Source: Cymodocea nodosa
Taxonomy: Eukaryota; Streptophyta; Magnoliopsida; Alismatales; Cymodoceaceae
Length of the DNA: 64,000 nucleotides
Reading direction: 5' to 3'
NCBI GenBank assembly: GCA_036874045.1
Contig: CM072340.1
Location: 3,983,001 to 4,047,000, forward strand
Shown here one piece after another: positions 25,802-64,000 of this stretch. Position 1 is the first letter of the stretch. Each line of letters begins with the position of its first letter. A model generated the notes under the pieces. That model was not told the origin of the DNA. It saw only the letters and a list, made by a program, of their open reading frames with translations, and did not search any database. The position numbers and the translations under genes are program-made.

Positions 25802-26734
25802 CTAGGGTAATGTAGTAGTTTCTATTTCTACATCTATTTCAATATACTCCTCTTCCCACTTCCATTCATTCATGTCTTCCATAATCCATATTTGAAATTT
25901 CATCAGTTCATCCCACCATCTTATCAGACATAAAGTAGGATCATCTTCTTCATTATACCACATTCCTATTTGAATTTCATTAAATTTTTCAGATGGTGGT
26001 TTAGCTATTTCACTCGGTACAGGTAAAATTTCTATATAATCATCATAACTGTCTATGCTCACTATGTATAAATCAGATCTATATGCTATTGATATCTCCG
26101 TGACTAAATAGATATAACCATCAAGTATCACATGTGTTTGGTTAATTATTGATTTCTGTCCTAGATATATTATAATGTTTTCATTCCAAGATCTGTTTAG
26201 AAAATTATACACACTTAAGCGTAAATCTTCACCCCAATTTCCTGTAGGTCTCCAATAATATAATTTTTAAGGAATTGTAGAATTTTTATTAGAAAATATT
26301 AAAGCTGACCCACAATTTTAAGTTGGTGCTTCAAATATATTAGGTCTTCCTATATTACATTCTTCTCCTATTATAGGATTTCTTATCAAAATATCAGGTA
26401 ATGATAAACTTGCATACCTTGGTCTCGTCTTGTATATGATTAATCCTTCATCTATCCGCATAATATGGCTCATTCCTTCTAATGCATTGGGTGGAATTCC
26501 AGTAGTTTCTTCCACAGCCAGATATTCATGGGTATTTGAACTACGATTAAATGACCTCCATATGAATCCATCTCCAATCTTAGTCATTTTTGCAGCTTGT
26601 AGTCCCTGAAAATATTTTTCTTCAATACAGTATTTAATTTCCTTTGATACACAACACAACCTGCACAAATCTTTAGGTGACAAGTTACTTAGTATTTCCC
26701 TTTGTGCATCCAATGGTAATTGCATTAATTCCAT
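25802..26734 (-). pseudogene. Retrotransposon-borne F-box gene, two stops
   Basis: From ATG at 26734: MELMQLPLDAQREILSNLS, then PKDLCRLCCVSKEIKYCIEE, a clear N-terminal F-box (about residues 3-45) that in F-box proteins binds SKP1. It continues through an F-box-associated-type region (LPDILIRNPIIGEE, then LRLSVYNFLNRSW) and ends WKWEEEYIEIDVEIET. Same length (933 bases) as the intact copy at 43554-44486. TAA stops at about 26319 and 26267 replace sense codons of that copy. Directly upstream is an acceptor-like TTTTACAG at 26745. The gene lies in element sense between the capsid ORF and the PPT. Confidence 0.85.
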
Positions 26735-26923: not shown

Positions 26924-28194
26924 TCATTCAGCTACCCTCCCAAAAGAGGTATCAATTTCATTAACTGTTCTATTGACAGGATTAGGTATAGCTTGTATTG
27001 GCAATCCTCCAGTAGGTCTACTTTCCATTGGTTCATTCTGTCTAAGTGGTATATTTCTATTCTGATTTTGAATTGCAGCACTTCCAAATACAAAATCTAG
27101 ACGATTGTTTAATTGTTGGATTATCTTTTCTAATTTCTCTATTTTAAATCCTTGTTCCAGTAATGCTTCATAACTTATATTCTTCTCATTCATATTTTCT
27201 CCTCCCTGGAAATTTTGTTTCTCCAAGATAAATTCAAATGATTTCTCCAATTAGGATTATAAGAATTTCCCAAGTTATCTCTCTAGTTTCTAGCATAAAT
27301 AATATCTAAATCATTTATGTTTGCATTCTTTTCTACTAGCTTTTGATTTAATGATAACTCTTCTATTTTCTTTGTTAATTCATTTAATTTCACCTCAAGC
27401 ATAGTATTGGAATCTATTTCATGCATTCCTCTTGGCAATAATCTTTTATCTACAATAGCTTCAGCCGAATTTTCCCACTGTGTAGTTCTTTTTGCAAAAT
27501 TTTCTAAATATGCCCATGCTTCTTCACTACATAATTTTAAAAATCCATTTTGACAAGTAGATTCTAATAAAGATTTCATTGAAACATCTATGCCTTCATA
27601 AATTATGTCTATTAATTGTGCTTTACTCATTGCATGATGTGGACATTGAGTCAGTAAATCTTTAAATCTTTCAAAATATTTCCAAAATGATTCACCCTAT
27701 TTTTGGCTACACATTAATATTTCTTTCTTCTTTTTAATCGTTTGATGTGTTGGATAGTATTTTTCTAGAAAAACAGAGCAAAATTCAGTCCATGTAGAAA
27801 TTGAATCAGGCAACAGAGTATATAACCATCTCTTAGCTGTATCTTTTAAAGCAAAAGGGATATATCTAAGTTTAATAGCATCTATACTCATGTTCGGCAT
27901 TCTCATCATTTGACAAACTTCGTTAAATTCTCTAAGGAAATAATAGGCATCCTCTCTTTCTAATCCATGAAAATGTGGCAATTGACTAATATAATTAGAT
28001 TTCAGTTCAAACCTATCTCCCTCAAAGTTTGGCAATCGAATACATGAAGGTTCATCAATTAATTCAGGATACAGAATCTCTCCTAATGGTTTTTCTACTG
28101 GAGCAGCCATCTCTACGTTCTCTTTTAAAGAAAGGTTAGCTACACCCCAAAGAATTTCGTTAAAGTTCAATTCAGAAAATTTTTCAGTACTCCT
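26924..28194 (-). pseudogene. Capsid-like gag ORF located downstream of integrase
   Basis: Retrotransposon gag capsid domain of Athila type: LPNFEGDRFELKSNYISQLP, FHGLEREDAYYFLREF, ALKDTAKRWLYTL, WTEFCSVFLEKYYPTHQ, FKDLLTQCPHH, then RGMHEIDSNTMLEVKLNEL and NSYNPNW. In canonical Athila gag a zinc knuckle lies between the MHEID and NPxW segments; here it is missing. TAGs at about 27697 and 27285 stand for CAG of the sister copy, and the frame shifts near 27215-27250. It follows the integrase region in the same sense. Confidence 0.85.
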
Positions 28195-39385: not shown

Positions 39386-41589
39386 TGTTGGCTTGGCTAG
39401 CATGATACTAGAAAAACTTGTTTGGATCTCCGACAAAGTACTAGAAAAACTATGATTTGTTAACTTCTGTTTTTACTTAGTTAATTTATCTTTATGCCTA
39501 TTCTTTTTCTTTTAGAAGTAAACAAACAACCTTTAATACAATTTAGATATTAATTCCAATTTGTACTTTAACTACAAGTGCATAGTGTCTATTGTATCAG
39601 TGTGCAAGTACAGGTCGATCCCATAGGGAATTGCTTAAGAGTTTAGAACTGTCCGTTTGTTAACAATCAAATTTATATATTCAATAAGCTCTTTGTTGAA
39701 TTACGGTTAACTCAACGGACAAATTCGTTGAGTTATTGCTAACTCAACAGACTAACCTCATGGACTTAAGTTAACTCCACGAGCCTGTCTTTTCTTTTTA
39801 AATACTGCTATTTACAAAGGAATTCTACCAACCATTGGGCAGTTCCACAGATTGTAAATAACATCAATTAAGCTCTTTAATGTTAGTAAACACTGGATTT
39901 ATCATTAAGCAATACAAACATTCAGATAATTCAAATAGTAACCATTAAAATCTTTAAGTCTTTTGATCGAACCAATTTCAGTAAACTGTAAAACTAAAAC
40001 AAACATAAAGCAATCACAACATTGACAAAGATAACATTAATCACGATACAACACAAATAATACAATACTCAAATACAAAATACAATAGTAGATAAGTTGT
40101 TTTTGGTATTTTTGTTTTAATATGAACATGGAAATGGGTGAAAGGTGAAATGTAAAATAATCTCAATCGACAGTAAATACTTCCGTCACTACATACAACG
40201 CGATTACACTATTGAAAATTAAACCACTTACAATCCTGTCTCCTCTCCCTATAGAATCGTGAGTCCAGAATTGCAAGATAATGTCCTCTTCAACATATAG
40301 GCATCAACCCGAAGTCAAGGCTAGAAGCTTTACGATTTCCTGAAATATGAGTCGGCGCTTGGTGAAAATGGCTTCCCTTCTCGTGACGCAATCACTCCTC
40401 ATAGTGGTTGTTATGTACCGTGTTAGGCTCGAAATCGACTCGACATCTAGAAAGTATTCTCACAGACCTCCGATGGTTGGTGATTGTGGTGGTGATGGTG
40501 GTGATAACGATGGTTGGTATGATACTTTGGAGAATTGCCGATACTGCTTGCAGAAAGCTCGGTGCTCCTCCTTTATACACACTGGCCGTCCATCGATCAC
40601 ACCCTCTTCTTTTCCTCTTTTTGTACTTTTATATTTCTTCAATGGTAACTGTTTATGCTTGAATGGTTCGTTGGATTTCCTTCATTCATATCAACGACGA
40701 TGATTTCTTCTCCCTACGCAATACATGCAATCGTGGTTTTTCTTCCAACTGTCCTATTTCTGCAACCGCTATAGTGGCATATTAGAAAATAAATAGTCTG
40801 TGGAGTTACAGATAACACAACGGACTTACCTTGTTGATTTAACTATAAAACACATGCATAAATTTAACTATCCAATGCTTAGATGCATTTCGGATAGTTA
40901 CAAATAACTCACTAATATATAACTTAAGTAAATCTACCAGATCTCGACATGTGTCAGTAGTAGTTTTAATAATAAAATACACATTTCGGGGAGTTACAAG
41001 TCTAACTATCCGATGCTCAGATGCATTTCAGATAGTTATAGATAACTCACCGAAAATCCACTTAAGTCACTTTACCAGAACATGACATGTGTCCACAGCT
41101 ATTTAATAATAAAATACACATTTCGGAGAGTTACATGTCTAACTATCCGATACTCAGCTGCAATTTCAAATAGTTATAGACAACTCACCGAAAGTTCACT
41201 TAAGTCAAGCATTATGGTTTCGACACATGTCCTTCAGGAAATAATAAAATATTCTTTTAAAACATAACTCTTCGGCAATATAAACATAACTATCCAATAC
41301 ATGTTCGATCTGTTAAATATAATTGTCCGAAATATGTTCGGTATGCTAAACATAATTGTCCGAAATATCAGAAAATTTGGATACTTAACAATTTCACAGC
41401 CTGCAACTTACCGACAGTTCAGAAATGTACTAAATTGACATTAATTTCCCAAAATTAAGTAGATTCTTTAATTAAAGCATATAATAGTGCAATTATAACA
41501 TAATTGCTTAATTCTCATATGATAAGCTAAATATTATGCAATTAACCATCATTTAACCGTTAATAATATGCACTTTTTCATTCTAAACA
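39386..41589 (-). repeat. G5 3' LTR, subtype B
   Basis: 2204 bases. Subtype B carries repeated AACTATCCGATGCTCAGATG and CGGATAGTTA...AACTCACCGAAA units at about 40865-41200 where subtype A has a copia-like segment. Confidence 0.88.
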
Positions 41590-41613
41590 CTTCCCCCATA
41601 CCTAAATTTTGCT
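41590..41613 (-). other. G5 polypurine tract
   Basis: Minus strand TTTAGGTATGGGGGAAG directly before TGTTTAG; identical to 23827-23850. Confidence 0.87.
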
Positions 41614-42298: not shown

Positions 42299-42335
<37 letters not shown>

Positions 42336-42950: not shown

Positions 42951-43553
42951 AAAGATTTGACAGTAAATACAGTAATTGTAGCAGGTATGAATACAGTTTT
43001 GTTGATTTAAAATTCAGGATAAGTAATCAGTTACATACCTTATTTTGTTTGTATCTCCTTCTACATATTCCGATTTTTGATTCTGAAAACTTTTCATTCA
43101 CAAATAAAAGCAAAAAATATATAACAGAATAACATTTAACAGATATTGATAATTCAGTATCTTGTGTGGAACCCAAGCTCCTATGCCTTTGGTCGCTCAC
43201 AAGCAACCTAGTTGGTTTCCTAGAACAGATACCAACAAACTAGATTGATATTTTGTTTTTTTTTTCTTTTATAAAATAAAATGAAAACTATATTTTTTTT
43301 AAAAATAAACATAGAATACACAACATTAAACACACAAAATCGCAGCTTAAGAACATGATTGAAAAGTAGGAACAAATGGAATAAATGTATCAGTCGAAGC
43401 AAACTTTTTAGGCATAGTTCTTCTTGCTATTAATTCTGTTTTCATGCAGTTCTTGTTCCTTCTTAATTTGTAAACGTGTAATATATTATAAATTCCAAAT
43501 ACAAGTGTATTACCATTAATGATATGAAATGCAGAAAGGGATCATTTTTGGTT
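42951..43553 (-). other. Region downstream of intact F-box gene
   Basis: A/T-rich, no gene recognised; matches 25171-25801. Confidence 0.55.
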
Positions 43554-44486
43554 TCAGGGTAATGTAGCAGTTTCTATTTCTACATCTATTTCAATATACT
43601 CCTCTTCCCACTTCCATTCATTTATGTCTTCCATAATCCATATTTGAAATTTCATCAATTCATCCCACCATCTTATCAAACATAAAGTAGGATCATCTTC
43701 TTCATTATACCACATTCCTATTTGAATTTTATTAAATTCTGTAGATGGTGGTTTAGCTATATCACTCGGTATAGGTAAAATTTTTATATATTCATCATAA
43801 CTGTCTATGCTCACTATGTATAAATCAGATCTAAATGCTATTGATATATCTGTGACAAGATATACATATCCATCAAGTATGACATGTGTTTGGTTAATTA
43901 ATGATTTCTGTCCTAGATATATCATAATATTTTCATTCCAAGATCTATTCAGAAAATTATACACACTTAAGCGTAAATCTTCACCCCAATTTCCTGTAGG
44001 TCTCCAATAATATAATTTTTCAAGAATTGCAGAATTTTTATCAGAAAATATTAAAGCTGATTCACAATTTACAGTTGATACTTCAACTCTATTGGGTCTT
44101 CCTATATTCCATTCTTCTCCTGTTATAAGATTTCTTATCAAAATATCAGGTAATAATAAACTTGCATACATTGGTCTCATCTTGTATATGATTAATCCTT
44201 CATCTATCCCTATAATATGATTTATTCCTTCTAATGTATTGGGTGGAATTCTAGTAGTTTCTTCCATAGCAAGATATTCATGGTTAATTGAACTACGATT
44301 AAATGACCTCCATATGAATCCATCTCTAATCTTAGTCATTTTTGCAGCTTGTAGTCCCTGAAAATATTTTTCTTCAATACAGTCTTTAATTTCCTTTGAT
44401 ACACAACACAGCTTGCATAGATCTTTAGTTGACAAGTTACTCAGTACTTCCCTTAGTGCATCCAATGGTAATTGCATCAATTCCAT
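43554..44486 (-). CDS. Intact retrotransposon-borne F-box protein, 310 aa
   Basis: Open from ATG 44486 to the stop at 43554. N-terminal F-box about residues 3-45: LPLDALREVLSNLSTKDLCK, then CCVSKEIKDCIEEKYF; Leu/Pro start, Leu-x2-Leu-Ser, LCxLCxVSKE match the F-box consensus. The rest resembles plant F-box-associated regions (LITGEEWNIGRPN, SVYNFLNRSWNENI, IVSIDSYDEYI, LMKFQIWIMEDINEWKW). No signal peptide or membrane segment. F-box proteins act as substrate receptors of SCF ubiquitin ligases through SKP1; the target here is unknown. The gene lies in element sense inside a full-length retrotransposon whose other genes are broken. Upstream are an acceptor-like TTATACAG (44497-44504) and a palindromic array. 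It may be a captured host gene. Confidence 0.85.
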   Translation of the reverse strand: MELMQLPLDALREVLSNLSTKDLCKLCCVSKEIKDCIEEKYFQGLQAAKMTKIRDGFIWRSFNRSSINHEYLAMEETTRIPPNTLEGINHIIGIDEGLIIYKMRPMYASLLLPDILIRNLITGEEWNIGRPNRVEVSTVNCESALIFSDKNSAILEKLYYWRPTGNWGEDLRLSVYNFLNRSWNENIMIYLGQKSLINQTHVILDGYVYLVTDISIAFRSDLYIVSIDSYDEYIKILPIPSDIAKPPSTEFNKIQIGMWYNEEDDPTLCLIRWWDELMKFQIWIMEDINEWKWEEEYIEIDVEIETATLP

Positions 44487-44553
44487 TTGTTGATTCTGTA
44501 TAATACAAACAAAAATTTAGCAGAGACAAAAAATAAACATAACTACTGCACAC

Positions 44554-44615: not shown

Positions 44616-44689
44616 ATACTATTAACTATAAATAAAAACATATATATACACTGATAGTTGCTTCAGATATGCTGCTTCATTCAACTATC

Positions 44690-45960
44690 CTACCAAAAGA
44701 GGTAGCAATTTCATTAATCGTTTTATTGACAGGATTATGTATTGCTTGTATTGGCAATCCTCCAATAGGTCTAACTTCCATTGGTTCCTTCTGTCTAAGT
44801 TGTATATTTCTATTCTGATTTTGAATTGCAGCATTTCCAAATACAAAATCCAAATGATTGTTTAATTGTTGGATTATCTTTTCTAATTTCTCTATTCTAG
44901 ATCCTTGTTCTAGTAATGCTTCATAACTTATATTCTTCTCATTTACATTTTCTCCTCCTTGGAAATTGTTGTTTCTCCAAGATAAATTCGGGTGATTTCT
45001 CTAATTAGGATTATAAGAATTTCTCAAGTTATCTCTCTGGTTTCTAGCATAAATAATATCTAAATCATTTATGTTTGCATTCTTTTCTGCTAGCTTTTGA
45101 TTTAATGATAACTCTTCTATTTTCTTTGTTAATTCAGTTAATTTCACCTCAAGCATAGTACTTGAATCTATTTCATGCATTCCTCTTGGCAATATTCTTT
45201 TATTTGCAATAGCTTCAACCGAGTTTTCCCATTATGCAGTTCTTTTTGCAAAGTTTTCTAAATATGCCCATGCTTCTTCACTACATAACTTTAAAAATCA
45301 TTTTGACAAGTAGATTCTAATAAAGATTTTGTTGAAACATCTATGCCTTCATAAATTATACCTATTAATTGTGCTTTACTCATTGCATGATGTGGACATT
45401 GAGTCAGTAAATCTTTAAATCTTTCAAAATATTTCCAAAATGATTCACCCTGATTTTGACTACACATTAATATTTCCTTTTTCTTTTTAATCGTTTGATG
45501 TGTTGGATAATATTTTTCCAAAAAAACAGAGCAAAATTCAGTCCATGTAGAAATTGAATTAGGCCACAGAGTATATAACCATCTCTTAGTTGTGTCTTTT
45601 AAAGAAAAATGGATATATCTAAGTTTAATAGCATCTATACTCATGTTCGACATTTTCATCATTTGACAAACTTCATTAAATTCTCTAAGGAAATAATAGG
45701 CATCCACTCTTTCTAATCCATGAAAATGTGGCAATTGACTAATATAATTAGATTTCAGTTTAAACCTATCTCCCTCAAAGTTTGGCAATCGAATACATGA
45801 AGGTTCATCAACTAATTCAGGATACAGAATTTCTCCTAATGGTTTTTCTACTGGAACAGCCATCTCTACGTTCTCTTTTAAAGAAAGGCTAGCTACACCT
45901 CATAGAATTTTGTTAAAGTACAGTTCAGAAAATTTTTCAGTACTTCTCTGCGATGAAAAT
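44690..45960 (-). pseudogene. G5 capsid-like gag ORF
   Basis: Same domain as 26924-28194: LPNFEGDRFKLKSNYISQLP, FHGLERVDAYYFLREF, WTEFCSVFLEKYYPTHQ, GESFWKYFERFKDLLTQCP, then RGMHEIDSSTMLEVKLTEL and NSYNPNW. Nearly open over 45291-45863, with a frame shift near 45298, a stop near 45230 and another near 45000. The zinc knuckle of canonical gag is missing between MHEID and NPNW. It lies about 3.8 kb downstream of the integrase stop and 10 kb from the NC ORF. Confidence 0.87.
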
Positions 45961-46292: not shown

Positions 46293-46966
46293 ATTTTGGT
46301 AACCGCTAAACTGGCGAAGTTTCGTTCGTGGTTAAAAGAATAACTGTTCTGCTTAATCCACGAACTAACCTCGTTGAGATACAGATAACTCAATGGAACA
46401 CAGTCGGTTACTATTGCTAACTCCACGAACTAACCTCGTTGAGTTATAGATAACTTAATGGAATGACCTTATATTATATTACTGACCTCGTGGAGTTAAG
46501 TTTAACTCAACGGAGTTACTTCGTTGTGTTAATAGTTGGCAACTTCTAAGTTTACTCTCGTAAGTACTTCTCTGTTTTTTTTTTTCTTTTTCATTCTGCT
46601 AGCTGAAATAAAGTTAAATCTATGCCATTAATGCATCATTCTAATCAAAATTCATTTAAATCTAAACATTATATAAAGATTTAACTTGCAAGTCATTGTA
46701 TGTTATGCAGAATTTACATTTTACCTTGCAACATGTAGAAATTTTTAAGCATTTATCTTGTCATTCAGCAAATTGTAAATCTGTTAAACATTCATTCATA
46801 AAGTTTCACAAATTATATAATATTCAATATATTCCATTAATTTCACATTCAAAACATGTATTAAAAGTACATCTAAAAATTTATATTCATTCATATGAAT
46901 CAATTTACATTACAATCAATTTAGATATTTTCATACAATTTTATACAAGTAGACGAACAATACAAT
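46293..46966 (-). other. G5 spacer between ORF3 and small ORF
   Basis: Non-coding. Palindromic array at 46356-46530; the rest is A/T-rich and homologous to 4344-4776. No LTR, primer site or PPT lies here, which argues against a hidden second element between integrase and capsid. Confidence 0.6.
46356..46530 (-). promoter_or_regulatory. Palindromic array before small ORF/capsid
   Basis: At least four pairs of CTCGTTGAG(A/T)TA and GATAACTCAATGGA-type words, about 65-240 bases upstream of the small-ORF ATG. Includes AACTCAACGGAG at 46504-46515. Confidence 0.38.
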
Positions 46967-49203
46967 TTAATCTCTATTCCTAAGTTCATCTACTTCCTTT
47001 TGGAGTTTTTCTAATTGAAGTTCTAATTGATTAATTCTCTCTACAGCTCCTGTAATTCCTCCAGAAAGTACAACAATCTCTGCAGCTACAAAATTTCTGT
47101 ATTCTTTCACTAAAATGGTTCTTGATCTGATCCTTTTTGATGTCCATTTCATGAAATCAATACAATCCGCCATCAGTAGTGGAATCAAATCTCCATAAAA
47201 TAATTTCTTCTTTACTGTTTTCAGCTTGGAGATAAAAACTACAAACCAATTTATTTGAATTCTATTTACAACTGCAAATGTGGCCCATTTGACAAATTGA
47301 CTCAGTTCTATGTCATGGCCTTATCGTTGATAGACATTCTTAATTAAAATGTTAGCTATCATGTGTGCTTTACCATTTAAATGTTTCAATCTGTTTAATA
47401 GAGGCACACCAAGATTGATAGCCAAACTGTCCTTGATTTCCTGTTTAGTCCATTCAACAGCAATTGTGTCTTCCAAAAATTTTAGTCATTCATTCTTCAA
47501 TCCAAAAATGTTGTGGAGAAGCTCTGGTGTTATTTGTACATCAGCTTCCTCCATGTTGGAAATTAATCCTCCTTCTCCTTCTCTTAAGTTTGCATAAAAG
47601 TAGGGCACTAAATTTTCATATACTGAATGCCCTCTTTCTTGAGAAATAAACTTCAGTAGACCTTGGAACTCAAATAAATCTTTGATTTCTTGCATTCCAT
47701 CTCAGTTTACTGGTCTATTGTAAATAATATCATAACCCTAATCTCTTGATATTTGACATAAGCTTCCTGACTCTAAAAATGTACTTCATTCAGAACTGTT
47801 GTTTTAGTCGGGTCAGGAATGTGACTTTGCTGTTCCAGAGGGGTTTGTTCTTGATATTCCTCTACTATAGGCTGCATCTAAACATTCTCTACAGATTCTT
47901 GAATTTCTGTTTCTGTTTCTGTCTATGGTGGTGAGCCGGCAGAACTCTCCACTCTGTCTTGAATTCTTTCCATAAATTGCTGAAGAGTTTCTTGCTCTTT
48001 AGTGGAATCTGTAAAATTATTTTTGTCTAAATGGCTTCTTTCAGCCTCTTCATTTTCTACTCTTTCTTCTTCCTCCTAGCTACCAATCTGCTCTGTTACT
48101 GTTCTTTCTGATTCTGTAACAGATTGGGATGGAGTCACGGGCAATTCAGTTTCAGCCCTAATTTCTGTTATTTCTTCTTGTACAGGCTGTAGATTAATTT
48201 CAACCTGATTTTCTTCTTGTCTTTGCTCATGCTGCTGTGGCTCCTGCTCCTCCTTAGAATCGGATAGCAAATTTATAAAAATTGGCTCCACAGGCCCTAT
48301 TGACATTGGTATCTCAGATTTAATCTCTTCTTGATAGTCAGGCACTATCTCTTTTCCTTTCCTTTTTTTGATTAATTGTGCTTGTTCTTCCTCTGCTTCT
48401 TTTGAAATTAAATCTACAAAAGTAGGCTCTACAGGCCTTCGAGCCACAGGTACTAGCTCTTCTTGTTTAACTTTCTCTATAATTATTGGTCTCGAAGGAC
48501 CAGCCTTAGCTGCTCTTGCAGCACTTGATTTAGCTGCTGCTTGATGCTGCTCAACCTTTATTCTGTATTGGGCCCTCAACTATTCTTCGACCCTTCTTCT
48601 CTTAATGGTATCATATAAAATATGTGCCTTAGCTGTAGCTATTTCTTGAGTATCACCTTGGTCTCTTGTTGTTTTAACCAAGCTAGTAAATTCTTTGTCT
48701 TCTTCATCAGTTCTCAGCTAAACAAATGCTAATCGTGGCAATGGCTCTGTTGGCTGAACTAGAGGTCTTGATTGTTGTTCCTTAGGAACAAGTCTTTCAG
48801 TAGTTGGTTTCGCCCGTTCTTTAGTTGCCTCTTCTTCATTTTCTTTCCTTTCTTGCTCCTAGATCGCCCATCTAGCTCATCTACAGATTCGTCTTTTGAA
48901 CCAGAGCCGGTACTTACGTTGGATTAATTCTAGGGCAACTTCGTTATTTGGCCTAATTTTTCTTTCTTTACTTACAGCAATTTTTGTAGCAACCTTTATT
49001 CTTGTTTCCATTATATGAGGTATTTGTATACCCAAATCTACTAAATCTCTTCTGAAATTGAAAAGTTCTGATTCTACCTTCTGTAGCTCTTTCTCTCTTG
49101 TCGTATTTCTGATCTTCTACCGCGTGTGCCATTCTTTTGATTCCTTTAGAAATTCTGATGTGTCAACAGCCACTTCCCAGAATTCAGGTGTCATCTTCCT
49201 CAT
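46967..49203 (-). pseudogene. G5 ORF3
   Basis: From ATG 49203 (MRKMTPEFWEVAVD) through EKELQKVESELFNFRR, the Glu-rich middle (EEIKSEIPMSIGPVEP), the plant-transposon domain (LFEFQGLLKFISQ, LVPYFYANL, FGLKNE), to the coiled-coil end (RINQLELQLEKLQKEVDEL). About eight in-frame stops, for example near 48075, 48582 and 47930. Domain and position are as in the + strand copies. Function unknown. Confidence 0.78.
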
Positions 49204-49786
49204 CGTGGAGTTACACAACAACACGGAATTGCTTTGATTTCTACTATTCTAGATTCTAAATGATTTGCCGGATAATGCCCCCAAAACCCTAGGTTTTAGA
49301 TAAAATATGCCCTAAGTTTAGGTGGGTAATCGAGTCATTTCCCGAACCAACTATTACTATCTCATCCGCAGTCTTAGCTATAGTACTCTGTTGAGTTACA
49401 ATTAACTCAACAAAATAAGCTCGTTGACTAACTCAAGACTCAACGAAGTAAGCTTGTTGAGTTAGGCGTAACTCAACGGACTTCCCATACAAACAGATAT
49501 AACAATAAAAGTACTACAGATAATAGTTTTTCTATTTTTTTACCAGTTTAATCGATACTATGTTTCGGTCAGACCTAATTTTTTTCTAATTGAACCGATA
49601 CTATGTTTCGGTAAAACTAACATTTTTTTCTTAAAATTAATATACATATTTTTTATGTTCTGGTCATATCGATGGATCTAGTCGGTTGACCCGTAACGAT
49701 TTTTATATTTTATATATATATATTTTTTTTAATGTGTTTTTTATTTTTTATTATTTTTATATATAAACATAAAAACTGATTTCTTA
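49204..49786 (-). other. G5 integrase-ORF3 spacer
   Basis: Palindromic array at 49384-49482 and about three ATCGATACTATGTTTCGGT units at 49540-49700. No gene. Confidence 0.65.
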
Positions 49787-51130
49787 CTACGTAAAGCTCG
49801 AATAGTCCTCTACTCTGACTTCTTCTATAATTCCAAAGGAGCTTTTTGGTGTTTTCAGAATAGGTCTAAGTCTTTGTCCATTTACTTTAAATATATTCTA
49901 ATTTTTAGGATTTTCAATTTCAATAGCTCTATAGGGATAAATATTTCGAACTATGTAAGGTCCTGCCCATCTAGATCTTAATTTTCCTGGATGGTTATAG
50001 AGTTTAGCCATATAAAGATATACTTCTTGTCCTATTTCAAAGCTTTTTGGAATAATTTTCCTATCATGCCAGAATTTCATTTTCTCTTTTTCTCTTACAC
50101 TCTTTGAATAAGCTTCATTTCTAAACTCTTCTAATTCAATTAGTTGCATTTTTCTATTTTCAGAAGCTTGATTTAAATTAGTGTTCAGAGTTTTTAATGC
50201 CCAATAAGCTTTATGTTCAATTTCAGTTGGTAAATGACAACTTTTTCCATATACTAGCCTAAAAGGTGACATACCTATGCTTGTCTTATAAGTAGTTCTA
50301 TAAGCCCAAAGTGCATCTATCAATCTATTAGCCCAATCTGTTCTAGTAGGATTTACTAATTTTTCTAAGATTAACTTAATTTGTTTGTTTGCACTTTCTA
50401 CTTGTCCACTTGTTTGTGGATGATATGATGTTGCAATTTTGTGGTTTACTCTATATTTCTTCATTAAAGCTTCAAAACTTCTATTATAGAAATGAGTTCC
50501 TCTATCTTTGATAATAGCTTTAGGTATTCCAAATTTGGCAAATATATTGGTTCTTATAATTTGTATTACCACTTTGTTGTCATTAGTTTTTGTAGGAATA
50601 GCTTCTATCCATTTAGATACATAATCCACCCCCAACAATATGTAATTAAATTGATTAGACATAGGAAATGGACCCATAAAATCTATTCCCCACACATCAA
50701 AGATTTCAACCTCAACAATAGGATTAAGAGGCATCATATTCCTCTTTGATATTCTTCCTATTTATTGATATCTTAAACAACTTAAGCAATATTTATGAGC
50801 ATCTTTGAATAGTGTTGGCCAATAAAACCCACATTGCAGAATTTTTGCAACAATTTTCCCTGAACTAAAATGCCCTCCACAAGCTTGATCATAACAGAAA
50901 GACAATAGCTCTAATATTCAGTTTCTGGAACACCTCCTTAAACCTAGATCAGGACATTTCTTAAATAAGTATGGATCTTCCCAATAGTAATATTTTACTC
51001 TTGAGAAAAATAATTTCTTATCCTGTCTATTCCAATCCTTAGGTGTTAAACCAGTTACTAAATAATTAACTATGTCTGCATACCAAGACATTGTGTTGAT
51101 GCTCATTAATTGTTCATCAAGAAAATTATC
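49787..51130 (-). pseudogene. G5 integrase
   Basis: N-terminal linker ([18 protein letters not shown]), a frame shift near 50920, H2C2 zinc region, a stop near 50762, then the core: [18 protein letters not shown] (Cys of sisters is Tyr), [26 protein letters not shown], and C-terminal [13 protein letters not shown]. Catalytic D, D and E are all readable. TAG near 49898 replaces CAG. Stop at 49787-49789. Confidence 0.9.
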
Positions 51131-52292
51131 CTTAATTTCAATATTTGATTTTTCTATTGTAATTTTGATAAATGATCTGCTATTACATTCTCACAACCTT
51201 TTTTATCTTTAATTTCTAAATCAAATTCTTGTAATAATAATATCCATCGGATCAATCTAGGTTTAGTCTCTTTTTTCTTTACTAGATGTTTTAAAGCTGA
51301 ATGATCCGTGTATACTATTACTTTAGCTCCAATTAGATATGATCTAAACTTTTCTAAGGCAAACACAACAGCTAATAATTCTTTTTCAGTAGTTGTGTAA
51401 TTAACTTGAGTATCATTTAAGGTTTTGTTTGCATAATGAATCACTATAGGAGATTTTTCTATCTTTTGTCTCAACACTGCTCCTACAGCAAAATCAGATG
51501 CATCGCACATTAATTCAAATGGATGGCTCCAATCAGGTGCTTGAATTATAGGAGTTGAAATTAAGTTAGTCTTAAGTCTGAAAAATGCTTCCTTGCAACT
51601 TTTTTCAAAGTTAAATGGGACATCTTTTAATAGATTAGTTAAAGGTCTAGCTATTTTGCTAAAGTTTTTAATAAATCTTCTATAAAAACCAGCATGTCCT
51701 AGAAATGATCTAATATCTTTTACTGATTTAGGTTCTGGTAGATTAGAAATTACTTCTATTTTAGCTTTATCTACTTCCAACCCTTTCTTAGAAACAACAT
51801 GCCCTAAGACTATTCCTTATTTAACCATGAAGTGACATTTCTCCCAATTTAAAACCAGACTTTTTTTCACACAACGTTTTAATATTAGGTCTAAATTTTT
51901 TAAACAGACTTCATATGACTTTCCATATACAGTAAAATCATCCATAAATATTTCTAAGAAATCTTCAGTCATTCTAGTAAATATGCCCTGCATACACCTT
52001 TGAAAGGTAGCTGACACATTGCATAATCTGAATGGCATTCTCTTAAAAGCATAAGTTCCATTAGGATAGGTGAAAGTTGTTTTCTCTTGATCCTCTAATG
52101 CTACTGGAATTTGATTATAACCTGAATACCCATCTAAGAAATAAAAATATTCTTGCCCTACTAATCTTTCCAACATTTCATCTATAAAAGGTAAGGGAAA
52201 ATGATCTTTCCTAGTCACAACATTCAGCTTTCTATAGTCTATACATACTCTCCAGCCTGATTGAATTCTAGTAGGTATCAAGTCTTGACTTT
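51131..52292 (-). pseudogene. G5 reverse transcriptase palm and RNase H
   Basis: RT: RVCIDYRKLNVVTRKDHFPL, FLDGYSGYNQIPVALEDQEK, FKRMPFRLCNVSATFQRC, FMDDFTVYG active site, LVLNWEKCHFM; a TAA near 51815; then the connection ([15 protein letters not shown]) and RNase H ([52 protein letters not shown]). Motifs are typical of Athila. The retroposon at 52293-52897 separates it from the RT N-terminus. Confidence 0.92.
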
Positions 52293-52910
52293 TCAGCATG
52301 CAATCAGTCTATACATGCTCGCCGCATGCAATCAGTCATCGGAAGAAATGCTGTCTAACAGATTTTTCTGACTCTTCTTTGTTCACATGGAAATGGCTAT
52401 TTTGATCGTACCATCCTTGTTTCGGTCTGACTATTTTTTCTACAGTTAGACCGAGTCTGCCCTGGTTGCACTGGAACTTAGACACGGTCACACCGATTTC
52501 TTCAGATTTTCTGAATTTTAGGTCTAACCGTCTTTCCCACGGTTTTTGTCGATCTTTTCAGCATTTCGGTTTGACCGCTCAGTCCACGGTTAAATCGGAC
52601 TATCTCTGGTCGGACCGATCACTACGCTCGGTCTCACCGACCAATCTTATCTTTCTACTCACTTTGGTTCAACCGTCAACTATTTGACAGTTCGACCGTT
52701 TTGGAAACTCGGTTTCACCGAATTTTTTCGGTTAAACCGGAATTTTTTTCCTGACACTTATTATATTTTCTTTTACTTAACAATATGTTGAGCCTTATAT
52801 TGCCCTTTATTGCAAAATTTTCTTTGGTTCTTACTTTATTAGCAGGACTATCCCTTGATGAATGTAAAGGATAGATATTATGAAAAAAAAAAAAAAAAAG
52901 TCTTGACTTT
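52280..52910 (+). mobile_element. Poly-A retroposon inserted in G5 RT
   Basis: An insert of about 605 bases (52293-52897) is flanked by AAGTCTTGACTTT at 52280-52292 and 52898-52910, a 13-bp target duplication, and ends in a 17-base A run. The uninterrupted site is seen at 16160-16210. This is the mark of LINE-driven retroposition: a SINE, a truncated LINE or a processed transcript. The body is rich in words like GGTCTGACC, GGTCTAACCG and GGTTAAACCGG. No coding frame of note and no clear pol III A/B boxes. Confidence 0.85.
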
Positions 52911-53240
52911 CATTCCTAATAACTGTTAATCCTGATTTCTTAGGAACTACATGGATTGGACTAACCCATGAGCTACCAGAAATCGAATAAATTATGTCAT
53001 TATCTAACCATTTCATTATTTCCTTCCTAACTACTTCTTTAAGATTTGGATTTAATATCCTCTTAGGAATTCTAACAAGTTTAGCATTCTCTTCTAAATA
53101 TATGTGGTGACAGCATAAAGTTGAACTTAACCCTTTTATATCAGTCATAGTCCATCCTATTGCTTCTTTATAACTTTTTACTACATCTTTTAATTTAGCT
53201 ATTTGATCCTCTTTTAAATCTGAAGCAATAATGATTAGAC
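52911..53240 (-). pseudogene. G5 RT N-terminal part
   Basis: EAIGWTMTDIKGLSSTLCCH, RILNPNLKEVVRKEIMKWL, SSWVSPIHVVPKKSG, then the retroposon target site. An in-frame TAA near 53243 separates it from the protease-side frame; the fragment at 15641-16538 has TGA at the same place. Confidence 0.85.
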
Positions 53241-55044
53241 AGGTTTATTTATCTTCCAGAAATATATATGTTAATTCAGAAGGTAAAGGTTTTAATTCTA
53301 AATGCTGCCCATTAGAAGCTAGAGCACCTAATTGAACATCATCATTTTCTAAATTATTTTCTTCTAGATCTCTTTCTATGTTTATGCTTTCACTTTCCTC
53401 TAAGGTTTTAGAATTGATTTGCCTATTTAATTCTTCTTGAATCACATCTTCTAACATATCTCCATCCTCTAAAAAGTCTATGGTATGCAAGGACATTTCT
53501 AACTCCTCAAGCCTTTCTAGTTTGAAAATATTTAATTGAGTATCCTCATTACCATATGCTAACTTCATTACTCCAGTTTTAATATTTATAACAGCTCCTA
53601 ATGTTGCTTAAAATGGCCTTCCCAAAATTAAAGATGTATCACTATTTTTATGTTTAATTTGTTGGGAATCCAAAATTACAATATCAATAGGATATATAAA
53701 GTTTTTGATTTTAATTAAGGCATCCTCTATTTTTCCTTTAGGGTGTCTTATACTTCTATCAGCTAATTGAATAACCGTACTAGTAGGAATTAAGCCTTCT
53801 AATCCTAAGGATGCAAATATATCACTTGGCATAACATTTATACCTACACCTAAGTCTATTAAGGTTATTTCTAGAATGGTATTTCCTATGGTGCATGATA
53901 TAACAGGGATTCTAGGATCAGATAACTTTTTAGGAATTTGTGGTAGAAATAGGGAACTATTTTGCTCAGCTAAAAAGACCTTTCTAAGAACTTTTCACTC
54001 TCTTTTCTTAGTACACCAATCCTTTAGAAATTTAGCATAAGGTGGCATTTTCTGTAATAGATCTAACAAAGGAATGTTAACTTGTACTTTTTCAAAAATT
54101 TCTCTGATTTTTTCTTGTTTTTCAGGTATTGTTTGTTGTAATCTTTCAAGATAGGGTGCTAAAAATTGTGATTTAAAAGATTCTTTTTCTTTTAGTTGAT
54201 TTGTTTGATCATTTTTAGCTTCATTAGCAGATTCAGATTGTTCTTCAGTGGTTTCTAGATTTTCTACTATTACATTTTCATTATCATTTTGATTTTTACT
54301 CTTATCCACCTTCATATTATTTTCATTTTGAGTTCTTGGTGGTATATCAGTTCAAGATCTTAATGTTACACAAACATCTTCCAAATTTTCGTTACTCTCA
54401 TGATGTTTTTATATATCATTTTTGTGATTATGATCTTCAATTGTTTTTAGTTTTAAAGTGCATTTTTTAAATTCTATTGCATTAGAATTTTCTGTTTGCT
54501 GTATATTTTGCAAATTATGTAGGTTTATAATATTATAATTTTCATTGTCCTGTTGCATAACTTGTATTTTCATTGTATATTCGTTCAATGCTTTTAGTTT
54601 TCTTTCCAGATCATTTAATCTCATTGCATTCAATTTTTGATCAATTTTCATTATAGTTTTTTCAGTTTCGTAAATTATATCCATTTTAGGTTTTGAATAT
54701 GCTCCCTTATAATTTAATTTGTTGACTTCTTGTTGCTAACACATAAAGTGTTCTAATTTGTCCAGGTTTTGCTCTATACTACGCTCCAGTCTGTTATACC
54801 TATCCCAAACTTCAGTGTCTGTCAACATATTACACATTCTATACTGACCATCAGTTGGGTAAACTATAGGATTCTCATACTCGGCTCTATTATATTGAGG
54901 ATAATTCATTTGTTGTTCATGGGATCTAACCATCTGCAAATGTCTCAGTTTCAAACAGTTAGAAATGTCATGTCCTTCAGAATTGCAGAATTCACATATG
55001 CTAACTACAGGTTTTAGAAATCTTTGAGCATAAGCATATGCCAT
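53241..55044 (-). pseudogene. G5 nucleocapsid-protease ORF, first ORF of the element
   Basis: From ATG 55044: MAYAYAQRFLKPVVSICEFC, zinc knuckle CEFCNSEGHDISNC (C-x2-C-x4-H-x4-C, about residues 17-30), coiled region (IDQKLNAMRLNDLERKLKAL), LRS...PPRTQNENN, then the protease with LIDLGVGINVMPSDIF and SLILGRPF. The active-site DLGA is DLGV here. It continues to LELKPLPSELTYIF at 53245. Stops near 54735, 54411, 54355 and 53610. The ATG is about 95 bases from the primer site, leaving no room for a capsid domain. Confidence 0.85.
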
Positions 55045-55136
55045 ATTCCTCAATTACAGAAGAAAACACACAATACTCTGGCTATTAAAACGAAACAGCT
55101 CTAACAGTTGCTTATATCAATTCAATTCAATTTAAT

Positions 55137-55154
55137 TCCCTGGCAGCAGTGCCA
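55137..55154 (-). other. G5 primer binding site, divergent
   Basis: Minus strand TGGCACTGCTGCCAGGGA, seven bases from the LTR, at the same place as TGGCGCCGTTGTTGGGGA of G3. Four differences from the tRNA-Asp complement, so priming may be weakened or this site has decayed. Confidence 0.7.
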
Positions 55155-55161
55155 TAAAACT

Positions 55162-57397
55162 TGTTCGCTTGGCTAGCATGATACCAGAAAAACTTATTTG
55201 GATCTTTAACAAAGCACCAGAAAAACTATGATTTATTAACTTCTATTTTTACTTAGTTAATTTATCTTTATGCCTATTCTTTTTCTTTTAGAAGTAAACA
55301 AACAACCTTTAATACAATTTAGATATTAATTCCAATTTGTACTTTAACTACAAGTGCACAGTGTCTATTGTATCAGTGTGCAAGTACAGGTCGATCTCAT
55401 AGGGAATTGCTTAAGAGTTTAGAACTATCCATTTATTAACAATCAAATTTATATATTCAATAAGCTCTCCGTTGAATTACAGTTAACTCAATGGACATAG
55501 TTCGTTGAGTTATAGCTAACTCAACGGACTAACCTCATGGACTTAAGTTAACTCTACGAGCCTGTCTTTTCTTTTTAAATACTACTATTTACAGAGGAAT
55601 TCGGCCAACCATTGGGCAGTTCCACAGATTGTAAATAACATCAATTAAGCTCTTTAATGTTAGTAAACACTGGATTTATCATTAAGCAATACTAACATTC
55701 AGATAATTCAAACAGTAACCATTAAAATCTTTAAGTCTTTTGATCGAACTAATTTTAGTAAACTGTAAAACATAAAACAATCACAACACTGACAAAGATA
55801 ACATTAATCACGATACAACACAAACAATACAACACTCAAATACAAAATACAATAGTAGATAAGTTGTTTTTGGTATTTTTGTTTTAATATGAACATGGAA
55901 ATGGGCGAAAGGTGAAATGTAAAGTAATCTCAATCGACAGTAAATACTTCTGTCACTACATACGACACGATTACACTATTGAAAATTAAACCACTTACAA
56001 TTCTATCTCCTCTCCCTATAGAATCGCGAGTCCAGAATTGCAAGATAATCTCCTCTTCAGCATACAGGCATCAACCCGAAGTCAAGGCTAAAAGCTCTAC
56101 GATCTCTTGAAATATGAGTCGGTGCTTGATGAAAATGGCTTCCTTTCTCGCGACGTAATCACTCCTCGTAGTGGTTGTTAGGCATCGTGTTTGGCTCGGA
56201 ATCAACCCGACATCTAGAAAGTATTCTCACAGACCTCTGATGGTTGGTGATTGTGGTGGTGATGGTGGTAATAATGATGGTTAGTATGGTACTTTGGAGA
56301 ATTGCCGATATTGCTTGCAGAAAGCTCGGTGCTCCTCCTTTGTACACATTAGCCGTCCATCGATCACACCCTCTTCTTTTCCTCTTTTTTTTCTTTTATA
56401 TTTCTTCAGTGGTAACTGCTTCTACTTGAATGGTCGGTTGGATTTCCTTCATTCATATTAACGATGATGATTTCTTCTCCCTACGCAATACATGCAATCG
56501 TGGTTTTTCTTCCAATTGTCCTGTTTCTGCAACCACTATAGTGGCATATTAGAAAATAAATAGTCCATGGAGTTACAGATAACTCAACGAACTTACCTCA
56601 TTGATTTAACTATAAAACACATGCATAAATTTAACTATCCGATGCTCAGGTGCATTTTGGATACTTATAAATTTAACTATCTGATGCTTAGATGCATTTC
56701 GGATAGTTACAAATAACTCACTGATATATAACTTAAGTAAATCTACCAGATCTTGACATGTGTCAGCAGTAGTTTTAATAATAAAATACACATTTCGGAG
56801 AGTTAAAGTCTAACTATTCGATGCTTAGATGCATTTCGGATAGTTATAGATAACTCACCGAAAATCCACTTAAGTCACTTTACTAGAACATAACACATGT
56901 CCACAGCTATTTAATAATAAAATATACATTTTGAAAAGTTATAGGTCTAACTATCCGATGCCTAGCTGCAATTTCGGATAGTTATAGACAACTCACCGAA
57001 GGTTCACTTAAGTCAAGCATTATGGTTTCGACACGTGTACTTCAGGAAATAATAAAATATTCTTTTAAAACATAACTGTTTAGCAATATAAACATAACTA
57101 TCCAATACATGTTCGGTCTATTAAACATAACTGTCTGAAATATGTTCGGTATGTTAAACATAATTGTCCGAAATATCAGAAAATTTGGATACTTAACAAT
57201 TTCATAGCCTGCAACTTATCGACAGTTCAGAAATATACTAAATTGACATTAATTCCCCAAAATTAAACAGATTCTTTAATTAAAGCATATAATAGTGCAA
57301 TTATAACATAATGGCTTAATTCTTATATGATAAGCTAAATATTATGCAATTAACCATCATTTAACCGTTAATAATATGCACTTTTTCATTCTAAACA
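55162..57397 (-). repeat. G5 5' LTR, subtype B
   Basis: 2236 bases, TGTTCGCTTGG to CTAAACA. Contains the subtype B CGGATAGTTA / AACTCACCGAAA units at 56630-57000. Right flank CCTGT pairs with CGTGT at 39381. Confidence 0.88.
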
Positions 57398-57402
57398 CCT
57401 GT

Positions 57403-60731: not shown

Positions 60732-62734
60732 TGTTTGGTTACCTAGCACGACACTAGAAAACTTGTTTGGATCTCTAGCACGGCACCAGAAAAACTTGGA
60801 TTTGTTAACTTCTGTTTTTTCTTAGTTAATTTATCTTTATGCCTATTCCTTTTTAGAAGTAAACAAACAACCTTTTACCCAAATTAGATATTAATTCCAA
60901 TTTGTATTTTAACTGAAAGTGCACAGTGTCTATTGTATTAGTGTGCAAGTACAGGTTGATCCCACAGGGAATTGCTTAAGAATTAATAACTGTTCTGTTT
61001 TTAACAATCAAATTTATATATTCAATAAGCTCTCCGTTGAGTTAACTATAACTCAACGAACTAACCTTGTGGACTTAAGTTAACTTCATGAGCCTGCATT
61101 TCCTATTTAATATTGCTATTTACAAAGTAATTCGGCCAACCATTGGGCGGTTCCAAAGATTGTAAATAACATCAATTAAGCTCTTTAATGTTAGTAAACA
61201 TTGGATTTATCATCAGGCAATACTAACATTCAGATAATTCAAACAGTAACCATTAAAATCTTTTAGTCTTTTGAACGAACCAATTTTAGTAAACTGTAAA
61301 ACTAAAACAAACATAAAACAATCACAACACTGACAAAGATAACATTAATCACGATACAACACAAACAATACAAAATATAAACACAGATAAGTTGTTTTTG
61401 GTATTTTTGTTTTGATATGAACATGGAAATAGGCGAAAGGTGAAATGTAAAGTAATCTCAGTCAACAGTAAATACTTCCATCACTACATGCTACGCGATT
61501 ACACCACTGAAAATTAAACCACTTATAATTCTGTCTCCTCTCCCAATAGAATCGCGAGTCCAGAATTGCAAGATGATCTCCTCTTCAGCATACAGGCATC
61601 AACTCGAAACCAAGGCTAGAAGCTTTATGATCTCCTGAAATATGAGTCGATGCTTGGTGAAAATGACTTCCCTTCCTGCGACGTGATCACTCCTCATAGT
61701 GGTTGTCAGACACTGTGTTTGGCTCAAAATCGACCCGACATCAGGAAAGTATCCTCACAGACCTCTGTTGGTTGGTGATTATGGTGGTAGTGATAATGGT
61801 TGGTGTGGTACTTTAGAGAATTGCCGATGGTGATCCTCCTTTGTACACACTGGCTATACCCATCGATCACACACACTTTACTTCTTTTTCTTCTTTTCTT
61901 TTATATTTCTTCAGTGGTAACTACTTCTACTTGAATGGTCGGTTGGATTTCCTTCATTCATATCAACGACGATGATTTCTTCTCCCTGCGCAATACGTGC
62001 AATTGTGTTTTTTTCCTTACAACTGTCCTATTTCTACAACCGCTACAATGTCATATTAGAAAATAAATAGTTTGTGGAGTTACAGATAACTCAACGGACT
62101 TGCTTCGTTGATTTAACTATAAAACACGTGCATAAATTTAACTATCCGATGCTCAAGTGCATTTTGAATACTTACAGACTTAACTATCCGATGTTCAGAT
62201 GCATTTCGGATAGTTACAGATAACTCACCGATATATAACTTAAGTCAATTTTCCAGATCACGACACCTGTCATCAACAGTTTTATAATAAAAGAAACATT
62301 TCAGAGAGTTATAGGTCTAACTATCTAATGCCCAGCTGCAATTTCGGATAGTTAGAGATAACTCACCGAAAGTTCACTTAAGTCATGCATTATGGTTTCG
62401 ACACGTGTACTTCAGGAAATAATAAAATATTCTTTTAAAACATAACTATTCGACAATTTAAACATAACTGTCCGATACATGTTCGGTATGTTAAACATAA
62501 CTGTCCAAAATAATAGAAAATTCAGATACTTAAGAATTTCATAGCCTACAATTTACTAACAGTTCAGAAATGTACTAAATTAACATTAATTCCACGAAAT
62601 TAAGCAGATTCTTTAATTAAAGCTTATAACAGTGCAATTATAACATAATGGCTTAATTCTCATATGATAAGCTAAATATTATGCAATTAACCATCATTTA
62701 ACCGTTAATATTATGCACTTTTTCATTCTAAACA
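60732..62734 (-). repeat. Gypsy 5' LTR, subtype B
   Basis: 2003 bases from CTAAACA end to TGTTTGG; carries CGGATAGTTA/AACTCACCG units at 62140-62370. It abuts the capsid fragment of the divergent family at 62735 with no target duplication to 21958. Confidence 0.86.
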
Positions 62735-63028
62735 CCACCTTCTTGCTCCATCTCTCAAGGTGAAGTGAACAAATCTCAATAAGATGGAATCATCTATCAG
62801 ATTTTGTATCTTCATTAGATTGCATACATCTTCAAATTCTTCAAGGAAGCCATAAGCATCCTCATCATCATGTCCCATGAACTTTGGTACTTGGCTGATG
62901 TAGTGGGATTTCAACTAAAAGTGTGCTCCATTCTCATCTGGTAGTTGAATGCAAGTGATCCTACTTCTCTGTGTAGGATAGAACATGTCTTTGAGTACCA
63001 CCCTCCTCTCATTGTTGTTTGTTGCCAT
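62735..63028 (-). pseudogene. Capsid-like gag start of a divergent Athila-like family
   Basis: From ATG 63028: MATNNNERRVVLKDMFYPTQ, a TAG near 62914, then LKSHYISQVPKFMGHDDEDA, YGFLEEFEDVCNLMKIQ, RFVHFTLRDGARRW. It is the N-terminal capsid domain, distant from the other family. Cut by the LTR at 62734. It lies downstream of integrase in the same sense. Confidence 0.85.
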
Positions 63029-63403
63029 GTGTATTTCTTTTTGATTCTCGATGCGTATCAACCTGTTATCTGCACCTCTCTCCCATCTTTTCATGCACTA
63101 AGACATTCACATCAGTTATGTAATTCAAGAGTATATGCAAGAGTTATTTACATGGTGAAATATCATCAAAGTGTACAAGTATCATCATATATCATAAAAT
63201 TTCAGCATGAATGGTTCACCATATAAACTCAAGATGACATGAAACAAAGAGGATAGATGCATGATAATAAGCATATAAAATTTTGACGTGAACTTGCAAT
63301 AATCAATTTTATTGTTAACTACTAACACAATAATACATAGAATGAAAAATTACTAAAAATTAAGAGCAGAAAAACTACATCTTCAACTAAATACATATAA
63401 AAA
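63029..63403 (-). other. Spacer between integrase and capsid, divergent family
   Basis: 375 bases, no LTR, primer site or obvious polypurine tract. Contains splice-acceptor-like GGTGCAG upstream of the capsid ATG. No gene. Confidence 0.5.
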
Positions 63404-64000
63404 CTAATTATAATTGGGTTCCAACAACAAAGCACTCTCTCCATGATTGTATGTTTTTCCAGGATAATATTCTTTAAGTCTTTGACCATTCACTATAGTT
63501 TTAAATCCTGTCTTACAATTTTCTATAGCTATAGCTCCATGATTATATATATGTTTAAAGATGAATGGTCCTGTCCATCTAGTCTTAAATTTTCCAGGGA
63601 ACAAATGTAATCTAGAATTATATAATAAAACTTCTTGTCCCTCATGAAAGTCCTTTCTCAAAATTTTCTTGTCATGGAATGCTTTTGCTCATTCTTTTGC
63701 AATCTTTGCATTTTCATAAGCCTCTCTTCTTATTTCTTCCAGCTCATTGAGTTGATATTTTCTTGCTTTTCCTACATCATCAACACACATGTTAAATGTT
63801 CTAATAGCCCATTCAACTTTATGTTCTATTTCTATAGGTAAATGGCATGCTTTCCCATAAACTACTCTAAATGGTGACATTCCCAACACAATTTTATAGG
63901 CAATCTTATAACCCCAAAGTGCATCATTAAGCTTTTCTGCCCAATCCTTCTTACTTGGTTTGATTACTTTTTCGAGCATTTGCTTGATTTGTCTATTGGA
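63404..64000 (-). pseudogene. Integrase of the divergent Athila-like family
   Basis: Integrase end: VIKPSKKDWAEKLNDALWGY, LGMSPFRVVYGKACHLPIEI, a TGA near 63690, then EGQEVLLYNSRLHLFPGKF, KTRWTGPFIFKHIY, IVNGQRLKEYYPG, stop at 63404. It is clearly related to but diverged from the other integrases. The window cuts its 5' side. Confidence 0.9.

What the first reader, a model, noticed from the sequence alone, without database searches (positions are those of the whole stretch)
43554..44486. Open F-box gene carried inside an LTR retrotransposon
A 310-codon gene with a clear N-terminal F-box and a plant F-box-associated-like tail lies in element sense between capsid and PPT. It is the only long accessory ORF in G5 without a stop, while neighbours are broken. 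A second copy (25802-26734) has identical length and position, so it is a family trait, not a chance capture by one copy. Some plant viruses use F-box proteins to redirect SCF ligases against silencing factors; an analogous role here is speculation.
Basis: partly seen in the sequence, partly recalled or inferred. Interest (0 to 1): 0.88.

Follow-up and report, generated by a model that had tools for sequence, protein, structure and literature searches.

The report
Spliced F-box gene in plant retrotransposon
A very common plant jumping gene carries an F-box gene (an adaptor for protein destruction) that looks selected rather than junk; it sits behind an intron holding the jumping gene's own, oddly relocated coat-protein gene, and copies lacking that intron indicate that its RNA is spliced.

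Summary
The F-box ORF is real, on the minus strand (43554-44486), and is a family trait: 128 matches were scored out of 6482 candidates in the host genome. In 20 copies fetched with flanks it sits among pieces of one Athila-like Ty3/gypsy element: LTR, zinc knuckle-protease-RT-RNaseH-integrase, env-like region, capsid, F-box, LTR. New points: (1) the window ORF is cut short; in 22 copies read, the frame's end lies at codon 378-382. (2) Capsid lies 3' of integrase and is missing from all five 5' ends read. A second family in the window has the same order; the one copy of it read downstream has no F-box. (3) Capsid lies in a 1.55-kb GT-AG intron ending 10 bp before the F-box ATG; 7 of 42 copies lack the intron and are scattered on the tree. 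(4) Variants shared by copies show constraint (about 0.45 of the noncoding-based expectation; F-box domain 0.26; noncoding control 1.01-1.16). Best reading: a selected accessory gene, expressed by a splicing switch between capsid and F-box, probably an SCF substrate receptor. Target, expression and donor are untested.

The parts
55162..57398 (-). 5' LTR of the F-box element, 2237 bp
   Evidence: Self-alignment; ends TG..CA and TSD-like ACAGG/ACACG, 4 of 5 alike; K2P 0.065 to the 3' LTR
55137..55154 (-). Primer binding site, resembling the Athila tRNA-Asp type (motif recalled)
   Evidence: Sequence; L017 and L021 show the less decayed TGGCGCCGTTG form
53460..55160 (-). 5' internal region: zinc knuckle (gag C part) and protease, no capsid
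   Evidence: Placed by alignment; CX2CX4HX4C motif and protease in L021; capsid tblastn finds none here
49598..53459 (-). pol: RT, RNase H, integrase, broken by stops and an insertion at about 52293-52897
   Evidence: ORFs, Pfam, alignments
46398..49597 (-). R3 region with env-like ORF in other copies (weak PF20167, E=1.5e-4, below cut-off)
   Evidence: Alignment; Pfam on L014
44496..46048 (-). Spliceosomal GT-AG intron, 1553 bp, containing the capsid gene
   Evidence: Absent exactly in L020, L026, L027; coordinates
45291..45863 (-). Capsid ORF (Retrotrans_gag), 190 codons here
   Evidence: PF03732 E=6.6e-20; genome copies
43554..44486 (-). F-box ORF, 310 codons, truncated form
43347..43553 (-). 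Rest of the family's F-box frame, broken here
   Evidence: In-frame stop at codon 378-382 in all 22 copies read
41591..41605 (-). Polypurine tract before the 3' LTR
   Evidence: Sequence
39386..41590 (-). 3' LTR, 2205 bp
25802..26734 (-). Second F-box copy, with two internal stops
27541..28110 (-). Capsid of the second copy
   Evidence: tblastn 92%
62723..64000 (-). Second, divergent family: integrase end (63404-64000), then capsid (about 63028-62723) on the 3' side; continues 5' in L089

Best explanation
A high-copy Athila-like Ty3/gypsy family gained an F-box gene, most likely after its capsid gene had moved to the 3' side of integrase. Full-length element RNA carries a spliceosomal intron that holds the capsid gene and ends 10 bases before the F-box ATG. 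Unspliced RNA keeps the capsid ORF; splicing removes capsid and joins an upstream exon, with its own in-frame ATG in most copies read, to the F-box ORF. So capsid and F-box would be alternative products of one RNA. Spliced RNAs were reverse-transcribed and inserted several times. Selection during amplification kept the F-box frame, most strongly the SKP1-facing F-box domain. Most likely the protein is an SCF substrate receptor that removes a host factor limiting the element; a silencing or RNA-decay factor is the first guess. Shown by sequence: family trait, layout, intron, repeated intron-less copies, constraint. Inferred: translation, SKP1 binding, target, benefit.
For: 128 of 6482 candidates scored, 88% or more identical. 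Of 20 flanked copies (ranks 2-21), 18 have the R3 region 5' of the F-box, 16 have capsid, and 18 reach the 3' LTR in the same order. L020, L026 and L027 lack exactly CTG|GTATGT..TTATACAG|AATC; L093, L105, L106 show the same join and L101 a near-exact one: 7 of 42 copies, or 5 of 33 taken in rank order. On the tree 6 spliced of 41 labelled need 6 changes, 5 forced by supported branches; without the near-exact one, 5 of 40 need 5. An upstream in-frame ATG is seen in 15 of 18 rows. Context-matched N/S, variants in two or more copies: F-box 0.45 (0.31-0.68), capsid 0.48, integrase 0.37, env-like 0.46; noncoding control frames 1.01-1.16; F-box read in wrong frames 0.93 and 1.39. F-box domain 0.26 against 0.52 for the rest; raw shared N:S 11:19 against 96:45, P=0.0018.
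Against: Copies were chosen by F-box protein score; shared variants give 0.44, 0.45, 0.47 over three rank groups, which argues against but does not remove the bias. All 82 copies taken at once give a weaker 0.67 (frequency bins not matched to the control). Singletons reach 0.86 in ranks 22-51, as expected for decay after insertion. The tail beyond codon 311 is inconclusive (0.51, 0.21-1.46). 43 of 82 copies have a stop within codons 1-310. No RNA or protein data; no relative in protein or PDB searches. FBA match below cut-off.
Confidence: 0.72

Rival explanations
1. Neutral passenger: a host F-box gene piece was transduced once into a successful master element and amplified by hitchhiking, without function for the element.
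For: 43 of 82 copies have a stop within codons 1-310; singletons are closer to neutral (0.70-0.86 in lower ranks); captured host genes without known role are common in plants (PMC7264820, abstract and passages).
Against: Shared variants at about 0.45, like capsid and integrase, against 1.01-1.16 in the noncoding control; strongest constraint in the F-box domain; shared stops nearly absent in the 22-copy set (1 seen, 0.08 of expectation relative to synonymous). Part of this could be ascertainment by protein score.
Confidence: 0.15
2. Self-control: the F-box protein is selected but acts on the element's own products, for instance capsid turnover, rather than on host defence.
For: Capsid and F-box would be alternative products of the same RNA, a natural place for feedback.
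Against: Nothing tested; the second family keeps the permuted capsid without an F-box in the copy read.
Confidence: 0.2
3. The intron-less copies arose by ordinary deletion or by recombination from one deleted copy, not by splicing.
For: The copies were read for only 100 bases; template switching between packaged RNAs can scatter one deletion over a tree; deletions with short matches occur at other places (L017, L021).
Against: The same ends at canonical GTATGT and TTATACAG in three fully read copies and three more joins; 6 changes for 6 copies, 5 forced; the other deletions examined lack GT-AG ends.
Confidence: 0.07
4. The 3' capsid is not the family's rule: normal elements with a 5' capsid exist and the copies read are derived.
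For: Only five 5' ends were read; the capsid search (150 scored of 6151) gave places without surroundings.
Against: None of the five 5' ends (two in the window, L017, L021, L089) has a capsid between LTR and zinc knuckle. Two families 47% alike in capsid share the order, one with a 962-codon open PR-RT-RH-INT frame.
Confidence: 0.15

Closest known systems
Athila / Calypso lineage of plant Ty3/gypsy elements (recalled; Athila named in PMC7264820 passages)
   Same: PR-RT-RH-INT order, tRNA-Asp-like primer site (motif recalled), long LTRs, a sense ORF 3' of pol with weak PF20167 similarity.
   Different: Capsid 3' of integrase instead of a 5' gag; an F-box gene; an intron around capsid.
Barley Bagy2 and other env-class elements with spliced RNA (passages of PMC7264820)
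   Same: A 3' accessory ORF reached by splicing.
   Different: Here the intron carries the capsid gene and the product is an F-box protein, not env-like.
Viral F-box proteins such as polerovirus P0 (titles and abstract starts only)
   Same: A parasite-encoded F-box, possibly meeting SKP1.
   Different: A 379-codon plant-type F-box protein with FBA-like tail; no silencing role shown.
Host genes captured by LTR retrotransposons (abstract and passages of PMC7264820)
   Same: A host-like gene in element sense.
   Different: The captures described there occur in one or a few copies; this one is in a very large family and under constraint.
Spumaviruses, where Gag and Pol come from separate RNAs (recalled)
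   Same: Capsid and enzymes not made as one polyprotein.
   Different: There pol is the spliced product; here capsid is the 3' gene.

Membership tests
F-box proteins (PF00646) | N-terminal F-box domain above the curated cut-off | tested here: met
   40 bits, cut-off 20.5; 37.7-39.9 bits in four further copies
F-box proteins (PF00646) | Binding to SKP1 in an SCF complex | not testable with these tools
   Needs an interaction assay
FBA-type plant F-box proteins | FBA_1 or FBA_3 domain above cut-off | tested here: inconclusive
   FBA_1 14.4-15.6 bits against 21.1 where listed; not listed for L025
LTR retrotransposons, Ty3/gypsy type | Paired LTRs, primer site, polypurine tract, PR-RT-RH-INT order | tested here: met
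LTR retrotransposons, Ty3/gypsy type | gag between 5' LTR and pol | tested here: not met
   Capsid 3' of integrase, absent from five of five 5' ends read
Athila lineage | tRNA-Asp primer site (recalled) | tested here: met
   TGGCGCCGTTGCCGGGGA in L017, close forms in L021 and L089; motif recalled, not matched to a tRNA gene
Athila lineage | env-like ORF with PF20167 domain | tested here: inconclusive
   E=1.5e-4, 22.1 bits against 45
Athila lineage | Position in an RT tree | not tested
   No reference RT set on hand

The most novel reading that the evidence does not exclude
A lineage of plant Ty3/gypsy elements has a split, permuted gag (zinc knuckle 5', capsid 3' of integrase). One branch made the capsid gene the content of an intron and uses splicing to choose between capsid and a selected F-box protein: an SCF receptor encoded by an LTR retrotransposon and serving it against host control.
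Probability: 0.5. Interest if true: 0.92.

Novelty: new variant of a known kind. Interest (0 to 1): 0.82.

Why it matters
If right, a retrotransposon carries its own ubiquitin-ligase adaptor, which gives a direct way to ask how plant elements deal with host control. A permuted gag whose capsid sits in an intron would be an unusual way for a retroelement to set capsid against enzymes. Intron-less genomic copies give a record of splicing that needs no RNA data.

Tried and rejected
Protein search with the F-box protein: 489 candidates, none at E up to 0.001. PDB sequence search: none at E up to 5. Structure from one sequence: pLDDT 38.7, not used further. Host donor through FBA_1 in the own genome: no match, but nothing rang in the 14 control genomes either, so it says nothing; an F-box family scan did not complete. 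A first N/S test by variant frequency looked strong, but the noncoding control fell with frequency too, so I replaced it by a context-matched test. Part of the control of those calls overlapped the likely end of the capsid ORF; I repeated all of it without that part, with nearly the same numbers, and cite. Deletions in L021, L017 and L009 were looked at as further introns and rejected for lack of GT-AG ends. A chance nest of elements was rejected by the 20 copies. Literature: nine answered full-text searches of PMC CC papers; no listing showed a paper on an F-box gene as a family trait of an LTR retrotransposon or on capsid 3' of integrase. I opened three papers, by passages or abstract; 'F-box' occurs 0 times in the main text of PMC7264820 and PMC3726574. 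Subscription journals are missing, so this is weak evidence of absence.

Full report
Observation. The ORF at 43554-44486 is on the minus strand, starts with ATG and has 310 codons. Pfam F-box matches residues 4-41 with E=3e-10; the tail matches FBA_1 only below its cut-off. The second copy at 25802-26734 has two in-frame stops. A six-frame search of the host genome (374.6 Mb, 28 contigs, unnamed; a plant by its elements, which is my inference) scored 128 matches of 6482 first-look candidates, 88% or more identical. Only the best candidates are scored, so the family may be much larger.

True length. I read 82 F-box copies: 81 of the 128 listed places (ranks 1-81, the window copy being rank 1) and the window's second copy. 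78 of 82 keep the ATG; 39 of 82 have no stop in codons 1-310; codon 311 is a sense codon in 61 and a stop in 21. On the tree that stop needs 17 changes for 21 copies, so it arises again and again. In the 20 copies with flanks and the window's two, all 22 have an in-frame stop at codon 378-382, and 8 of the 20 are open up to it. The window ORF is a truncated form.

Layout. For ranks 2-21 I fetched about 10 kb each and placed the pieces of the window element on them. All 20 have the F-box with neighbouring pieces of the element; 18 have the R3 region 5' of it, 12 have some pol further 5', 16 have capsid, and 18 reach the 3' LTR. The rest have deletions, insertions or end too soon. At least four further places in the separate capsid and F-box lists lie 0.3-0.8 kb apart in the same order. 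The window element has LTRs of 2237 and 2205 bp, K2P 0.065, 2.5 to 4.6 million years at recalled rates of 1.3e-8 and 7e-9.

Capsid on the other side. The 5' ORF starts soon after the primer site with a CX2CX4HX4C zinc knuckle and goes on to protease (the knuckle is read by eye, no knuckle family was called). Of the 20 long loci, capsid is found in 16, each time between R3 and F-box; in the window it is found in the two F-box copies and in the second family. Five 5' ends were read (two in the window, L017, L021, L089); none has a capsid. The second family, at the window's right edge and L089, has a zinc knuckle, a 962-codon open frame from protease into integrase, and then capsid about 0.4 kb after the integrase stop. 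Its capsid is 47% identical to the first over 87 residues. A search scored 150 places, 69 of them at 78% or more, 11 of these in 454-codon open frames. In one copy the 1.6 kb between the capsid stop and the LTR hold no F-box-like ORF (L110). So the order seems older than the F-box, on the evidence of two families and one downstream copy.

The intron. L020, L026 and L027 lack exactly the stretch from CTG|GTATGT to TTATACAG|AATC, which ends 10 bases before the F-box ATG. In the window copy this is 44496-46048, 1553 bp, and it holds the capsid gene. 100 bases upstream of 20 more F-box copies showed the same join in L093, L105 and L106, and a near-exact one in L101. In all 7 of 42 copies (20 + 20 + the window's two). 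Of the second 20, thirteen were taken in rank order, four because frame length hinted at splicing and three as contrast, so the fairer figure is 5 of 33 in rank order. Three copies that the script marked '?' retain the intron's end by eye. On the tree 6 of 41 labelled copies are spliced and need 6 changes, 5 forced by supported branches; leaving out the near-exact one, 5 of 40 need 5. Repeated loss with the same GT and AG ends is best explained by splicing followed by reverse transcription, though template switching could spread one event. An upstream ATG in frame with the F-box once spliced is present in 15 of 18 rows; unspliced, the capsid frame has an ATG 29 bases into the intron.

Selection. 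Variant frequency alone misleads, since the noncoding control shows the same trend. I took rates by base context from the noncoding stretch 41600-43345 in 21 copies and compared observed with expected N and S (first form). Variants in two or more copies: F-box 0.45 (0.31-0.68; 22 copies), capsid 0.48 (0.27-0.88; 17), integrase 0.37 (0.19-0.77; 11), env-like 0.46 (0.35-0.60; 17); the control's own three frames 1.16, 1.01, 1.04; the F-box read in wrong frames 0.93 and 1.39. The control supplies the rates, so its values near 1 are partly by construction; the wrong frames are the freer check. The tail after codon 311 is inconclusive (0.51, 0.21-1.46). Because copies were chosen by F-box protein score, I compared rank groups with sets of 20: shared variants 0.44, 0.45, 0.47; singletons 0.51, 0.86, 0.70. 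The bias shows in singletons of the top copies, not in shared variants. All 82 at once give 0.67, with bins not matched to the control. The F-box domain gives 0.26 and the rest 0.52; raw counts of variants in three or more of 82 are 11 N:19 S against 96:45, P=0.0018. Intervals treat variants as independent.

How it most likely works. The simplest reading is a two-way RNA: unspliced RNA is genome and carries the capsid ORF, spliced RNA serves the F-box protein. A plant-type F-box with constraint concentrated in the SKP1-facing domain points to an SCF receptor; what it brings in is unknown. Plant viruses use F-box proteins in silencing suppression (titles and abstract starts), so a silencing factor is a fair first candidate, with the element's own capsid as rival.

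Compared with the known. Sense ORFs 3' of pol and spliced env-like RNAs are known in plants, and captured host genes are usually in one or a few copies (PMC7264820, abstract and passages; PMC11963269, passages). Nine full-text searches listed no account of an F-box family trait or of capsid 3' of integrase, which is weak evidence. I call it a new variant of a known kind: an Athila-like LTR retrotransposon that fails the usual gag-pol order, so I do not file it as a plain Athila member.

Noticed in passing
62723-64000 and L089 (C12:4047001-4056000): A second, divergent Athila-like family with zinc knuckle-PR-RT-RH-INT-capsid order and a 962-codon open frame; 69 capsid places at 78% or more, 11 with 454-codon open frames, which hints at recent activity.
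   Followed up: partly
52293-52897: About 0.6 kb present in the window element's pol but absent from L020, L026 and L027, flanked by a short repeat of about 13 bases; looks like a later insertion.
   Followed up: no
9771-12444 (minus) and 31355-34475 (plus): Copia-like pieces (by eye from the ORF translations), repeated in opposite orientation at about 95%.
   Followed up: no
40865-41208 and 56653-57016: Tandem repeats of about 138 bp inside the LTRs of the F-box element; LTR length differs between copies.
   Followed up: no
noncoding control 41600-43345 across 21 copies: C-to-T changes at CHG and CG sites dominate variants shared by copies (0.69 and 0.65 per site against 0.17 at CHH), as expected of methylated elements.
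   Followed up: partly
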